A stretch of DNA of 64,000 bases from Polystyrenella longa (GTDB lineage Bacteria > Planctomycetota > Planctomycetia > Planctomycetales > Planctomycetaceae), in NCBI RefSeq assembly GCF_007750395.1, contig NZ_CP036281.1:967211-1031210 (forward strand), written 5' to 3'. A model generated the notes under the pieces. The model was given only the letters and a program-made list of their open reading frames with translations, ran no database searches and was not told the origin of the DNA. This document shows, one piece after another, positions 6,850 through 24,262 of the stretch (within the stretch, counting starts at the first letter, position 1; the number at the start of each line of letters is the position of its first letter). The position numbers were made by a program, and so were the translations under genes.

Positions 6850-8496
6850 TTAATTTGCTTCTGCTTCCTCTTCAATACGATTTCTCTCAAAGAACCAGAT
6901 CACGCCAAACAAGACAGCCAGCGACACGTACCCAATCAGGATTCCATACCCGCGAAAAACATAAATACCCTCAGGCGGGGTTTGATGAATCAACAGATAG
7001 TCGATGATGTTCCCACTCAGTTGATATGTGTGAATCAAACCGATCCCTGTTAACAACGCTGCCAGTGTGCTCCATATGGTAGCGGCCCCGAACTGGCGTT
7101 TGATCAGGCAGGCGGCCATCGCCGAGAGAATCATGCATGTGAAAATATATCCTCGTTCCATGACGAGCAAGCCGTTCAAAAGGAACCCGTTCACATCGAA
7201 GTCCCGGTTCTGTTCCAGAACCTCCTGCATGGTGGCGACGCCTTCTCCCGTAAAACTAAGAGCAAAGAATGTTCCCATGACAGCGGTCGCGCCCCAGGCG
7301 GCTATCGCTGGAAACAGGCCCATGGCAACGGCGGGGGCGTCTTCCAGAGGAGTGGCCTGAAATGCCTGAGCCGTAATAATGATGCCGATCCACAGCACAA
7401 TCGCAATTCCCGCTTCAAGCGGTATGATGTTTTGAATAAGGCTTGCCACGCCAGTCAGGCAGATCACAGTGAAGACGATTCCATTCAGGACCGAATAACC
7501 TGCCCGGGCTCCCAGCGCTTTCCAACCCGGATGACCGATGTAAATTGTCGTGGGAAAACAACTACCGAAACAGGCACCGACGATACTGCCGAGTCCATTC
7601 ACGGCCATTGATGAACCCGTCGAATAACTGTCGCCCGCCGCTTCGGCCGATTCAACATTCTGCATGCTTCCCAGAACATTGAACAAGCCCATCGGGACGA
7701 TGACAGAAAGGTAACCGACCCAGTTATTGTTTTTCGATAGTAATTCCCAAATCTCCTGTCCGTAAAACTGAGGCAGATAAAAGCCGACTTTCTCAATCGA
7801 GTTTGAAATCGCCCCCGAATCCATCGCTGGTCCTGCGAGAGCAGTAGGTAATACATTGGGGAGGACCCACGCGGTGATAGTTCCGATTAAGACCGCCAGT
7901 AATCCCGCCGGCAGACCGAATGGAAATCGATAATGGCTGAAGTAACCCAGCATGATGATTCCCAGTGGGAGCATGGCGACGAGAGGGCGTTGATAAATCT
8001 GGAGAGCAAAGGTCATCGCAATGAATCCAATTGCAATACCGGCCAATGTCGACAGAAGCGCAGCACGAGGGGTGGTCTTGCGGATTTTTGAACCGACGAA
8101 GCTTCCAAAGAATTCGATGATGCCACTTCCCAAACAGGCAACCAGCCCCATCTTCCAGGCCAGGTCGGCATCCAGCGTACTGTCGTAAACGGGCTTCATG
8201 ACAAACAGCACGTAGATAATCACCGACGGAGTATTGATTCCATACGGTAATGCAGTGACATCATCTCGGCCAGTTTGCTTTGCCAGTCGCCACGCCTGCC
8301 ACGCATAGAACAAATTCCCCACCAGCAAACTCATTGCGATTCCGGGAAGAATGGCGTGGGTCAGTAATTCGGAATCTGGGGTGATTCCACACAGGCCAAG
8401 CAGCGAGAAGATCAGAATCAACTGCACCAGGTTGTCGATGAACAGACCGAAAAAACCGTCGAGGTCACCTTTGCAGAAGAGGGGCAGGCGTTTCAT
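6850..8496 (-). CDS. NCS2-type (AzgA-like) purine/uracil permease family protein
   Basis: The 548-aa protein is almost entirely hydrophobic, with about 12-14 predicted membrane helices. The features '[18 protein letters not shown]' near residue 85 and '[20 protein letters not shown]' near 275 match the xanthine/uracil/adenine permease superfamily, in which these loops line the substrate site. It ends with a charged cytoplasmic tail. The exact nucleobase or other substrate cannot be told from the sequence. The 148 bp between its start and the divergent tadA gene must hold both promoters. The gene is convergent with hemC. Confidence 0.82.
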
Positions 8497-8644
8497 GAAG
8501 GGGGCCGATCAGGATAAGATATGGGAAACACGCGGCGAGACCGTTTCCTCAGGAGTTTTAGATCTCGATAATACTCTGCAGACGACGTAAACTCAAAGGG
8601 ACGCGTAGTCGATCTGTCCGCACCTCCGTCACGATATCTCGAAC

Positions 8645-9154
8645 TTGAAATCAGGAACCCATTCGTTGCTTGAATCGACGCCCAATTTATTACAACCCCA
8701 CGACCGCTGGATGCAGTTGGCCCTCAATCAGGCACGCATGGCCTTCGAACAAAAAGAAGTTCCGGTTGGCGCCGTGATTGTGTACAACGAACAAGTCGTC
8801 GGAGAAGGGCACAATATGCGGGAGACTTTGCAGGACCCCACGGCCCACGCCGAGATGATTGCCATCACCCAGGCAGCGGAGACGCTTGGTTCATGGCGTC
8901 TGCTTGACTGCACTCTCTATGTCACGCTCGAACCTTGTCCGATGTGTGCGGGAGCGCTGGTGCAATCCCGGATCCCCACGATCGTCTATGGTGCCACCGA
9001 TCCCAAAGGAGGCGCCTGTCACACGCTCTACCAGATCACCGACGACAGCCGGCTCAATCATCGAGCGAGCGTTCTCGGTGGAGTGCTGCAGGAAGAATGC
9101 CGGTTCCTGTTACAGGACTTTTTTGCGCAACAGCGGGCGCTGGGAAAGAAGTAA
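8645..9154 (+). CDS. tadA: tRNA-specific adenosine deaminase
   Basis: TadA converts the wobble adenosine of tRNA-Arg(ACG) to inosine. The 169-aa protein carries the zinc-dependent deaminase motifs '[11 protein letters not shown]' (His ligand and catalytic Glu) and '[17 protein letters not shown]' (two Cys ligands), followed by the typical '[11 protein letters not shown]'. The start is uncertain: a TTG at 8645 keeps the expected first helix ('[13 protein letters not shown]'), while the first ATG (8711) would cut into it. No strong ribosome-binding site precedes the TTG. It is followed seven bases later by a small membrane-protein gene. Confidence 0.93.
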
Positions 9155-9161
9155 GGCGACT

Positions 9162-9653
9162 ATGTCCAGCAACCGCCAGCTTCCATTTCACCGGCATCTC
9201 TTTTTTGCCTGGCACATCACAATCGCCGTTTTGTGGATGCTCTTCAGCGTGGCATATATTTGGAACGGAGCGGAAACGAAATACACGCCCGGTCGGTTGT
9301 TCGGCTACGCGCTAGTGGTGGCCTGCCACTATGTCTTCGTTTCAGCCTTCTTGAACTTTCGCTACTTGCAATCTGCCGATCCTGAGATCGAGGACATGCT
9401 CCGTCGCACCCAACATCGGCAGCTGAACTATCGACGACTCTATCTACGAGTGGGGCTGCTGGCGGCAGGCACGTTTTTCTCCCTGCTGCTAATCGTATGG
9501 GGACTGTTGCAGCTGGCTGATACCAAACCGGACGGCGGTATCTTAACCCTCCTAGTTCTGGGAACGATCGGGTTGCAGTTTCTGGCATTCAAGGTCGTTC
9601 GCATAAAAACGGCTATTCGTTTTCTGCAGGAGAAACTGGAGCAAGCTGAATAG
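9162..9653 (+). CDS. Small integral membrane protein, unknown function
   Basis: This 163-aa protein begins at an ATG seven bases after the tadA stop codon. It has four hydrophobic segments (about 14-35, 45-68, 95-118, 124-142), with a charged stretch between the second and third ('DPEIEDMLRRTQHRQLNYRR') that is probably cytoplasmic. I do not recognise the family. Its 3' end overlaps the 3' end of the convergent gene at 9613-9978 by 41 bp. A longer reading of the same frame starting at 8859 runs through tadA and is not credible. Confidence 0.6.
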   Translation: MSSNRQLPFHRHLFFAWHITIAVLWMLFSVAYIWNGAETKYTPGRLFGYALVVACHYVFVSAFLNFRYLQSADPEIEDMLRRTQHRQLNYRRLYLRVGLLAAGTFFSLLLIVWGLLQLADTKPDGGILTLLVLGTIGLQFLAFKVVRIKTAIRFLQEKLEQAE

Positions 9654-16238: not shown

Positions 16239-16281
16239 ATCGCCGCAGCAAAACGAACCGCTGCAGATTGACCCACAAAGA

Positions 16282-16315
16282 AAACAGCCTCCGCTGGAAA
16301 CACCGGAGGCTGTTT
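16282..16315 (+). terminator. Intrinsic terminator of rpsR
   Basis: AAACAGCCTCCG (16282-16293) pairs perfectly with CGGAGGCTGTTT (16304-16315), followed by a run of T to 16320. A closely related copy lies at 21644-21677. Confidence 0.9.
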
Positions 16316-16462
16316 TTTTTATGCGCCGAATTTTTCTGTATAGTGACCGTGATTTGCACGTCACTTTGAATTAGAGCGTGAACTTGAAAGTCACTTGGGA
16401 TTGGGACGCGAACGGACTGAGAACGATTTTGTAGAAATTAAGGTGTCTATTGTGCGCGACAG

Positions 16463-17959
16463 TCAATCAGTGGTTGATCCCACTTGGTAGACATCATTAG
16501 TCTCCTGGTCCGGAAATACATTAACCATTCCATCTTCTGAGACGACCACGATCACACAATCTGGATGAGTGTTGATGTAACGCGTGACCGAATTGAACCT
16601 CGCTCCCCGGGACGGATCTTCGTTCGGTGCTAAGTTACCGTCGAGAATTAAACCTACCCCATGACAGACTCCTTGCGGGTCCACCATGATTGCTCCATCG
16701 ATTGACATTGCTCCGCAAAGGGCGTTCTCATCAAAATCAAAAGGACGAATTCCGAACATCCCCGCAATTCGCTCGCATTCGTTTGCCGCGTTTTTTGAGA
16801 TGACTACGACAGCCCCATGATGAGATTGGGCTGCAATTTTTACGATTTCGCAAAGGATATCTGAGTTAGATACGACTCCAAACTGCTTGGCGAGAGCAGA
16901 CCGAACAATATCCAATTTTACTGGAGGTTGAGGAAGGCCCGGGTTACCATATCGTACGTCCATGAGCGTCGTACCTAGATGTGACATCTGCCAATGGTGA
17001 TGTCCTTTAAATTCGACCGTGCAAATTTCCATTTTTGATGGATCGTATTTTGTCTTGTCGAACCTACCGAGTCCCCATGCATATCGCGAATCACACAAAA
17101 TCGACAAGCCACCGCTGCACATCTCAAGCATCTTTCGAACACGTCGGTGGTGATTGAGCAACATTGGGAGCTTATATTTGAGTACAGTATCGATCGCCGG
17201 GTGAGCGGGATCGGCAATAATCATCCCTCCCAATCCTTCCCGCTTCTCGTAGGGGAATGAGGCGATGATGTTGCATGCGTCGAACAACTTCAATGCGCCA
17301 CGATAATGGATGTCCAGGCCCGGTACGAGATTTCCGGAACGACTATGCATTCGCATAAAAAAATCACCAGCCACTCGAAGCGTTTGTTGAGAATCGAGCG
17401 GTTCGTAGCCTTTCTCTCTGCCAGGATTTCGCTTATCCAATTCCTCAGCGAACTGGTTAAGTACAGCCTCAATCACTCCGAACTGCAGCGATGGCCACCT
17501 ACCATGATTGGTGAATACGTCCATCGTGACTGTGGGATACTTCATGAGATCGGTCTCACTAAAGATGGCCACCAGCGCGACCACTTTACCATTCACCTCC
17601 ACCGTCGGCGAGACGGAGCTCAGCAGTCCCTGCCCATTAATCGCATGCTTGACCGCGTCTTGGATCTCTCCCCACCACTCCCCGCATTGCATGTCATAAG
17701 CCTGATAACCTCGGTACCATTCGACTTCTTCAAGATCATCGGATGGATGCAGTGGGAACTGCTGTGGATGCGAGAAGTGTTTTTCGATTTCAAAATTCGC
17801 AGCATATCCGTCTTCTGCCAACACGGACATGGAGCCGGCGTCTACTCCCACCAGAATGACGTGGCATTCGATTTTGCAGCTCAAAAGGTCGAGCACGTCC
17901 CTGAGATGCTTTTCGCAGGCTGCGAGAATTTGTTTTTCGAAGCGAAGAATCTGATGCAT
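16463..17959 (-). CDS. Diadenylate cyclase (DisA-N/DAC) domain protein with long N-terminal sensor region
   Basis: The C-terminal part (about 365-480) of this 498-aa protein matches the DAC domain that makes c-di-AMP from ATP. It has 'HHGAVVVISKNAANE', the DGA motif at residues 421-423 ('MSIDGAIMVDPQG'), 'GLILDG', 'SRGARFNSV' and 'CVIVVVSEDGMV'. In DisA/CdaA enzymes the second ATP motif reads RHR; here it is R454-F-N, so the first Arg is kept and the next two differ. The 360 residues before it match no fold I can name with certainty; the stretch 'VEFKGHHHWQMSHLGTTLM' is like the linker sheets of DAC proteins with sensor domains (DACNV/DACNH type). No membrane helix is seen, so it is probably cytosolic. 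The gene is isolated, with about 220 bp and 560 bp of non-coding DNA on its sides. Confidence 0.75.
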   Translation of the reverse strand: MHQILRFEKQILAACEKHLRDVLDLLSCKIECHVILVGVDAGSMSVLAEDGYAANFEIEKHFSHPQQFPLHPSDDLEEVEWYRGYQAYDMQCGEWWGEIQDAVKHAINGQGLLSSVSPTVEVNGKVVALVAIFSETDLMKYPTVTMDVFTNHGRWPSLQFGVIEAVLNQFAEELDKRNPGREKGYEPLDSQQTLRVAGDFFMRMHSRSGNLVPGLDIHYRGALKLFDACNIIASFPYEKREGLGGMIIADPAHPAIDTVLKYKLPMLLNHHRRVRKMLEMCSGGLSILCDSRYAWGLGRFDKTKYDPSKMEICTVEFKGHHHWQMSHLGTTLMDVRYGNPGLPQPPVKLDIVRSALAKQFGVVSNSDILCEIVKIAAQSHHGAVVVISKNAANECERIAGMFGIRPFDFDENALCGAMSIDGAIMVDPQGVCHGVGLILDGNLAPNEDPSRGARFNSVTRYINTHPDCVIVVVSEDGMVNVFPDQETNDVYQVGSTTD

Positions 17960-21446: not shown

Positions 21447-21600
21447 CCTACGCAGACAACGATTCTACTGAGCATTCGTGTTGGCGGTACCAGTCGTAGG
21501 CGATGGGGAGACCGGCTTCGAGTGGGGTTGTGGGTTGCCAACCCAGATTGGTCAGCTTGCTCACGTCGAGAAGTTTGCGAGGGGTTCCCTCGGGCATCGT
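21447..21600 (-). pseudogene. Truncated copy of the 3' end of fcl
   Basis: About 154 bp here align with 23263-23416, the last part of the GDP-L-fucose synthase gene, with only a handful of differences. The copied frame still encodes '[18 protein letters not shown]' through 'CSVESLSA' and its stop. The upstream nine-tenths of the gene is absent: homology stops abruptly at 21600, where a copy of the rpsR 3' flank begins. It cannot encode a working enzyme. Confidence 0.85.
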
Positions 21601-21688
21601 ATCGCCGCAGCAAAACGAACTGCTACAGATTGACTTACCAAGAAAACAGCCTCCGTTGGAGACACCGGAGGCTGTTTTTTTGCGCGGA
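21601..21688. repeat. Copy of the rpsR downstream region including its terminator
   Basis: This stretch aligns with 16239 to about 16330, starting exactly one base after the rpsR stop codon: ATCGCCGCAGCAAAACGAA is shared, then a few substitutions, then the same hairpin AAACAGCCTCCG/CGGAGGCTGTTT (21644-21655 and 21666-21677) and T run. It probably still works as a terminator, and on the minus strand it lies just downstream of the gene ending at 21692. Confidence 0.8.
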
Positions 21689-23166: not shown

Positions 23167-23263
23167 TGGGGGATCCAGACCAGAGAGAATCTAAGCGGAC
23201 TTACATAATCACTCGGATTATATTGCCCTGAAATAGTCCATTCAACCTAAAAATCTTCATGTC

Positions 23264-24262
23264 CTACGCAGATAAAGACTCTACTGAGCATTCGTGTTGG
23301 CGGTACCAGTCGTAGGCGATGGGGAGACCGGCTTCGAGTGGGGTTGTGGGTTGCCAACCCAGATTGGTCAGCTTGCTTACGTCGAGAAGTTTGCGAGGGG
23401 TGCCCTCGAGCATGGTGGGGTCGAATTTCAGTTGGCCTTCGTAACCGACAACCGACTGGACTGTCTCGGCCAGTTCGCGAATGGTGATGTCGATTCCCGA
23501 ACCGACGTTGACCGGTTCGGCAGCGGAATAATGTTTGACGAGATGAATCAGTGCTCGCGCACAGTCGTCGACATACAGGAATTCCCGCCGGACATTGCCC
23601 GTTCCCCAGATGGGGACTTCGGGTGCCCGCTCGGTTTTGGCGATGTGCATCTTCTGGATCAACGCGGGAATGACATGCCCCGCTTTTTCATCGTAGCGAT
23701 CCCCCGGGCCGTACAGGTTGGTCGGCATGGCGGTGATCATGTCGAGACCGTATTGCTTGCGGTACGCCTGACACAATTTGATTCCGGCGATCTTAGCGAT
23801 GGCGTACCATTGATTCGTCGGTTCCAGCGGTCGAGAGAGCAGGGCTGATTCCTGAATGGGCTGCTCTGCCTCGCGCGGGTAAATGCAGGAAGAGCCCAGC
23901 AGCAGCAACTTGGCGACACCCGCCTTACGGGCCGCTTCGATGATGTTGGTCTCGATTGTCAGGTTCTGATAGATGAACTCGGCCGGGTAATGATCGTTCG
24001 CCCAGATGCCGCCGACTTTGGCGGCGGCGATGATGATCACATCGGGTTGATGCTCGGCGACCCAGGCTTCGGTTTTTGCCTGACGTAACAGATCGAGTTC
24101 AGCGCGCGAAGCGGTGAGCAGTTTGCAATCTTCCTGTTGCAAATGTCGGCAAATCGCGGAACCGACGAGTCCCGTATGCCCGGCAACCCAGATCTTGCGA
24201 CCGGTCAGGGGAAAAGCAAGCTCCGTCTGCGATGCGAACGCCAGGGAAGAATGTTCCGACAT
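23264..24262 (-). CDS. fcl: GDP-L-fucose synthase
   Basis: The enzyme (also called WcaG) epimerises and reduces GDP-4-keto-6-deoxy-mannose to GDP-L-fucose with NADPH. The 332-aa protein is a short-chain-dehydrogenase type: 'KIWVAGHTGLVGSAICRHL' (nucleotide-binding glycine loop), 'LLLLGSSCIYP' (catalytic Ser), 'YAIAKIAG' (catalytic Tyr-x3-Lys), 'NLYGPGDRYD' and 'FLYVDDCARAL'. It lies 113 bp after gmd on the same strand, so the two genes make the complete two-step pathway from GDP-mannose. A truncated copy of its last 150 bp is at 21447-21600. Confidence 0.95.
   Translation of the reverse strand: MSEHSSLAFASQTELAFPLTGRKIWVAGHTGLVGSAICRHLQQEDCKLLTASRAELDLLRQAKTEAWVAEHQPDVIIIAAAKVGGIWANDHYPAEFIYQNLTIETNIIEAARKAGVAKLLLLGSSCIYPREAEQPIQESALLSRPLEPTNQWYAIAKIAGIKLCQAYRKQYGLDMITAMPTNLYGPGDRYDEKAGHVIPALIQKMHIAKTERAPEVPIWGTGNVRREFLYVDDCARALIHLVKHYSAAEPVNVGSGIDITIRELAETVQSVVGYEGQLKFDPTMLEGTPRKLLDVSKLTNLGWQPTTPLEAGLPIAYDWYRQHECSVESLSA

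What the first reader, a model, noticed from the sequence alone, without database searches (positions are those of the whole stretch)
16463..17959. Isolated diadenylate-cyclase-domain protein with a variant second ATP motif and a long unknown N-terminal region
Seen: a clear DAC core (DGA at 421-423, VVVSEDG) with R-F-N where DisA/CdaA enzymes have R-H-R, after about 360 residues that match no domain I can name. The family knowledge is that DAC domains make c-di-AMP and that the RHR motif contacts ATP. Inference: this is a ligand-gated or divergent cyclase, possibly one of the DAC types with dedicated sensor domains. Planctomycete c-di-AMP signalling is little described, and no c-di-AMP phosphodiesterase or receptor is next to it.
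Basis: partly seen in the sequence, partly recalled or inferred. Interest (0 to 1): 0.65.

Follow-up and report, generated by a model that had tools for sequence, protein, structure and literature searches.

The report
Orphan accessory c-di-AMP-type cyclase with sensors
This gene encodes a real cyclic-dinucleotide-type enzyme of a known but little-studied, patchily spread family whose distant relatives help bacteria fight viruses; its odd active-site motif is normal for that family, so it is a new planctomycete member rather than a new kind of enzyme.

Summary
The ORF at 16463-17959(-) encodes 498 aa with DGA at 421-423, RFN at 454-456 and VVVSEDG at 471-477. Two inferences change. (1) The N-terminus is not unknown: Pfam finds DACNG (98-202, E 9e-9) and DACNH (224-327, E 1e-25) before DAC (375-485, E 5e-8). 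(2) RFN is no personal oddity: R-[YFL]-N is kept in every readable relative, including those found without using the motif. The predicted DAC domain matches CdaA-ATP (Z 12.2). Purifying selection is strong.

Relatives include the DAC of E. coli DS-2, a tested CBASS-linked anti-phage system whose DAC catalytic residues are needed. The window protein is not DS2_3: 300 bits against a cut-off of 630, no CBASS neighbours, no SMODS in its genome. It lies in a planctomycete clade whose nearest members sit beside a TrwC relaxase or a GmrSD-type gene; few genomes carry it (9 of 397 in the class). The genome also has a housekeeping DacZ_P-DAC cyclase and a DHH-DHHA1 protein beside MscS. Most likely this is an accessory, sensor-gated, possibly defence-related cyclase. 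A structural lead: DACNH resembles a degenerate DAC fold.

The parts
16463..17959 (-). DACNG-DACNH-DAC nucleotide cyclase gene, 498 aa
   Evidence: ORF; Pfam; NF053872 300 bits, below cut-off; AF2 model pLDDT 82; dN 0.23 against dS near 2 with L027
17411..17959 (-). N-terminal alpha/beta domain, residues 1-183 (Pfam DACNG matches 98-202); weak GAF/IclR-like fold
   Evidence: DACNG E 9e-9; IclR/GAF rows Z 5-6.6 over residues 1-183
16979..17290 (-). DACNH domain, residues 224-327; predicted structure resembles a degenerate DAC fold
   Evidence: Pfam E 1e-25; VIA-align Z 6.4-8.8 to DAC structures over residues about 207-343; no sequence-profile support
16505..16837 (-). DAC cyclase domain, residues 375-485
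   Evidence: Pfam E 5e-8; Z 12.2 to CdaA-ATP 8c4o, 118 residues, rmsd 2.4
16691..16699 (-). DGA motif, residues 421-423
   Evidence: sequence; D421 and G422 invariant in 32 relatives
16592..16600 (-). RFN, residues 454-456 (position of RHR in CdaA/DisA)
   Evidence: R454 and N456 invariant in 32 relatives; family's RYN aligned with RHR of 2fb5
16529..16543 (-). VSEDG motif, residues 473-477 (S474, D476 invariant)
16239..16319 (.). copy 1 of an 81-nt direct repeat (rpsR terminator region)
   Evidence: its terminator core occurs only twice in the 6.1-Mb genome
21601..21681 (.). copy 2 of the 81-nt direct repeat (91%), 5.36 kb away; the two copies bracket the cyclase gene

Best explanation
The gene encodes an accessory diadenylate-cyclase-type enzyme of the DACNG-DACNH-DAC family. 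Two N-terminal domains (one weakly GAF/IclR-like, one DACNH) most likely sense a ligand or an infection/stress signal and control the C-terminal DAC domain. That domain would join two ATP into c-di-AMP or a close relative, using D421/G422 and R454 as in CdaA/DisA, with the family-typical R-[YF]-N in place of RHR. It is additional to the genome's housekeeping DacZ_P-DAC enzyme and is inherited patchily. The role most in keeping with its relatives is stress or anti-phage signalling. Shown: domain content, predicted fold, conservation, selection, distribution, contexts of relatives. Inferred: catalysis, product, ligand, defence role.
For: Pfam DACNG, DACNH and DAC all above cut-off. DAC fold Z 12.2 to CdaA-ATP. 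D421, G422, R454, N456, S474 invariant across 32 diverse relatives. Strong purifying selection. NF053872 DS2_3_antiphage matches over 470 residues at E 2e-89, though below its equivalog cut-off. The DS-2 DAC needs its predicted catalytic residues for defence (PMC13092281). A CD-NTase lies near the DAC in 10 of about 91 loci, in at least three places on the tree. Patchy: 3 of 130 good-quality genomes in the family, 8 of 339 in the class. Nearest relatives lie beside TrwC relaxase (L027), GmrSD_N and PIN genes (L028), a DNA methylase (L029). The housekeeping route is separate: DacZ_P-DAC (L001) and DHH-DHHA1 beside MscS (L143).
Against: No enzyme of this clade has been assayed here or, in what I could read, elsewhere. 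No effector or receptor lies next to it; SMODS was not found in the genome and SAVED was not either, but the SAVED control was silent, so that is no evidence. In Hymenobacter the family sits in conserved chromosomal neighbourhoods near a chloride channel, which points to a housekeeping role there. Composition of the gene is not strongly foreign.
Confidence: 0.6

Rival explanations
1. Housekeeping or osmotic c-di-AMP synthase: the protein tops up the cellular c-di-AMP pool in response to a metabolite or ion signal, with no role in defence.
For: DAC enzymes elsewhere control K+ and osmolyte transport (established knowledge). In Hymenobacter the gene has a fixed chromosomal setting near a CBS-domain chloride channel. 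The window copy is orphan among housekeeping genes.
Against: The genome already holds a DacZ_P-DAC and a DHH-DHHA1 protein beside MscS. The window clade is rare and found beside mobile or defence genes in its nearest relatives.
Confidence: 0.25
2. Part of a CBASS system (DS-2 type) whose other genes are elsewhere in the genome or were lost.
For: Homology to DS2_3; repeated pairing of relatives with a CD-NTase plus patatin or Cap15 effector.
Against: No CBASS genes in the neighbourhood and no SMODS match in the complete genome, with the control search working. Below the DS2_3 cut-off. The DS2_3-like clade is distinct and carries DGT where this protein has DGA.
Confidence: 0.08
3. The DAC domain is catalytically dead (R-F-N instead of RHR) and acts as a nucleotide sensor.
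For: The His and the second Arg of RHR are replaced, and relatives keep N instead.
Against: D421, G422, R454, S474 and E475 are kept and the protein is under strong constraint; the DS-2 DAC needs its predicted catalytic residues and DS2_3-like homologues carry R-Y-N.
Confidence: 0.07

Closest known systems
E. coli DS-2 DAC / NCBIfam NF053872 DS2_3_antiphage
   Same: Same architecture aligned over residues 15-484 (E 2e-89); R-[YF]-N signature in DS2_3-like homologues
   Different: 300 bits against cut-off 630; no CD-NTase or phospholipase partner; DGA rather than DGT; lacks the roughly 90-residue C-terminal extension of the CBASS-linked forms
Pfam DACNG + DACNH + DAC proteins (PF21752, PF21750, PF02457)
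   Same: All three domains present above cut-off
   Different: No difference in domains; belongs to a planctomycete-only subclade (window, L027, L028)
CdaA / DisA diadenylate cyclases
   Same: DAC fold (Z about 12), DGA, first Arg of RHR, VSE
   Different: R-F-N for R-H-R; different N-terminal domains
DacZ_P-DAC (housekeeping DAC of the same genome, L001)
   Same: DAC domain
   Different: Different sensor domain (PF21755); SRHW motif; higher DAC score (75 against 33 bits)

Membership tests
DAC domain family (PF02457) | profile match above curated cut-off | tested here: met
   33 bits against 27
DAC domain family (PF02457) | DAC fold | tested here: met
   predicted model, Z 12.2, 118 residues, rmsd 2.4 to CdaA-ATP
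DAC domain family (PF02457) | DGA and RHR motifs | tested here: inconclusive
   DGA present; RHR is RFN, but R-[YFL]-N is universal in this subfamily
DAC domain family (PF02457) | c-di-AMP synthesis | not testable with these tools
   needs biochemistry
DACNG-DACNH-DAC proteins | both sensor-domain profiles above cut-off, before DAC | tested here: met
   DACNH 90 bits, DACNG 36 bits, cut-offs 27
DS2_3 anti-phage protein (NF053872) | score above equivalog cut-off | tested here: not met
   300 against 630 bits
DS2_3 anti-phage protein (NF053872) | adjacent CBASS CD-NTase and effector | tested here: not met
   neighbours are rpsR, an Fe-S biosynthesis protein and genes without Pfam match; no SMODS in genome

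The most novel reading that the evidence does not exclude
DACNH is itself a degenerate DAC domain that has lost the catalytic Asp but keeps an invariant Arg, so each polypeptide carries a pseudo-cyclase in tandem with a live cyclase; since DAC enzymes work as face-to-face pairs, the pseudo-domain would act as a nucleotide sensor or as a built-in inhibitory partner that is released on a signal such as infection.
Probability: 0.3. Interest if true: 0.65.

Novelty: new member of a known kind. Interest (0 to 1): 0.4.

Why it matters
It adds an orphan planctomycete branch to a cyclase family recently tied to phage defence and shows that the family is wider than its CBASS-linked forms. If the orphan forms also defend, DAC-made signals would work in immunity without a cGAS-like partner. 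The R-[YF]-N signature gives a simple marker for this class. The possible pseudo-cyclase nature of DACNH would suggest how such enzymes are switched.

Tried and rejected
PADLOC gave no match to the protein. A single-sequence PDB search found nothing relevant. No relative in 50,697 phage records; a single-protein viral-contig scan found none, the alignment scan found 5. Conserved synteny around rpsR was looked for to prove an insertion: the flanking genes were not found beside rpsR in relatives, so it could not be tested this way. Sequence profiles give no support for DACNH being related to DAC (hhalign probability about 1% or less); only the structural match stands. CBASS membership was rejected. 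The c-di-AMP (ydaO) riboswitch and YbbR/CdaR were not found in the genome. Galperin 2023 on DAC architectures is not in the library, so what it says of DACNG/DACNH was not read. Composition of the gene is a little off but not diagnostic.

Full report
Observation. The ORF at 16463-17959 on the minus strand codes for 498 aa. The nearest homologue (66% identity over 484 residues) starts at the same Met; dN is 0.23 and dS near 2 (saturated), with third codon positions changing most, so the protein is under purifying selection.

Fold. An AlphaFold2 model from 32 relatives has mean pLDDT 82 and pTM 0.78. Residues about 360-485 match CdaA and DisA structures, best Z 12.2 over 118 residues to CdaA with ATP (8c4o) (Foldseek E 1e-4). 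Residues 1-183 match IclR-type and GAF ligand-binding domains at Z 5-6.6, which is weak.

The variant motif. In the alignment of 32 relatives, D421, G422, R451, G452, R454, N456, R460, S474 and D476 are invariant. The genome-contig and viral-contig scans used this motif as one of their seeds, so I checked relatives found without it (plasmid tblastn, and genomes searched with DACNH): every one in which the motif could be read has R-[YFL]-N. The profile alignment to the solved DAC 2fb5 puts the family's RYN opposite RHR. R-F-N is therefore the family's own form. The genome's own housekeeping DAC has SRHW at this place, so the last Arg of RHR is not fixed even there.

Family and defence. NCBIfam's DS2_3_antiphage model matches over residues 15-484 at E 2e-89 but at 300 bits against a cut-off of 630. 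DS-2 is an E. coli system of phospholipase, cGAS-like enzyme and DAC; mutation of two predicted catalytic DAC residues removed defence, and 15 of 30 DAC homologues lay beside a CBASS (PMC13092281). In the loci fetched here a CD-NTase lies near the DAC in ten: L008, L009, L036, L043, L059, L069, L086, L088, L108 and L013 (SMODS E 5e-39), out of about 91 loci, of which many are near-identical Hymenobacter and Pedobacter settings. On the tree these fall in at least three places: a Pseudomonadota/plasmid/viral-contig clade, Bacteroidota, and Priestia (L072 was labelled there by clade only, its flank is too short to test; L013 lies among long branches). In L043 the effector is a Cap15-type receptor. 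The Pseudomonadota clade carries DGT where most others carry DGA. A PADLOC scan of near neighbours gives cyclases, 2TM effectors and PtuA, with 299 matching models for 120 proteins against 36 for 81 distant ones; the models are redundant, so this is only a rough sign.

The window clade. The window protein groups with L027 and L028, both planctomycetes. L027 lies beside a TrwC relaxase, L028 beside GmrSD_N and PIN genes, and a further relative, L029, near a DNA methylase. Only 3 of 130 good-quality genomes of the family, and 8 of 339 of the class, have a match. In the window the neighbours are bS18, an Fe-S biosynthesis protein and genes without Pfam match, and no SMODS protein is found in the complete genome (control positive). 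An 81-nt direct repeat brackets a 5.36-kb stretch holding the gene, and its terminator core occurs only twice in the genome; with a duplicated 154-nt fcl end abutting the second copy this suggests an old duplication or insertion, but no empty site could be compared.

Background c-di-AMP in this genome. A DacZ_P-DAC protein (L001) and a DHH-DHHA1 protein directly after an MscS channel (L143) are present. This looks like a separate housekeeping circuit, so the window protein is an extra cyclase.

How it most likely works. Shown: three-domain build, predicted DAC fold, conserved catalytic-type residues, constraint, patchy spread, defence and mobile contexts of relatives. Inferred: the N-terminal domains sense a signal, the DAC domains pair and make c-di-AMP or a related molecule, and the product triggers a response through an unknown receptor. 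I put this at 0.6 overall, with higher belief in cyclase activity (about 0.8) than in the defence role (about 0.5).

A structural lead. When residues 1-350 were modelled alone (pLDDT 83), the DACNH part (about 207-343) matched DAC structures and nothing else among the listed rows: 2fb5 Z 8.8 (over 149-337, rmsd 7.3), DisA 9y4s Z 8.2, DacM 7dfx Z 8.0 with 121 residues, CdaA up to 7.7. Foldseek itself gives no significant hit, Z near 8 is close to the level seen by chance, and sequence profiles show nothing. Reading the order of strands and helices by eye, the invariant R275 would stand where R454 stands in the live domain and the catalytic Asp would be missing. This is a hypothesis only.

Noticed in passing
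16239-16319 and 21601-21681; 21447-21600 and 23263-23416: 81-nt direct repeat (rpsR terminator region; core found only at these two places in the genome) and an abutting 154-nt duplicate of the 3' end of the NAD-dependent epimerase (fcl-like) gene bracket about 5.4 kb with the cyclase; looks like an old duplication or insertion.
   Followed up: partly
L029:7926-9467: The cyclase homologue of a Pirellulales MAG is split into two ORFs (7926-8714, 8808-9467), possibly a frameshift or assembly error.
   Followed up: no
L055, L065, L070, L075 and other Hymenobacter loci: In Hymenobacter the DAC sits in a conserved chromosomal setting with an HI0933-like flavoprotein and a CBS-domain ClC channel, unlike the patchy forms.
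   Followed up: partly
L008, L009, L059, L072, L086, L088, L108: The Pseudomonadota/plasmid/viral-contig clade of the family reads DGT where other members mostly read DGA.
   Followed up: partly
L004 (G000:C1:5801900-5802013): Weak sub-threshold DACNH match (22 bits) in a 767-aa AAA protein of the same genome that by eye looks McrB-like with an EVE-like region.
   Followed up: no
L143:435-2454: MscS channel directly followed by a DHH-DHHA1 phosphoesterase in the same genome, a possible c-di-AMP/osmotic pair.
   Followed up: partly
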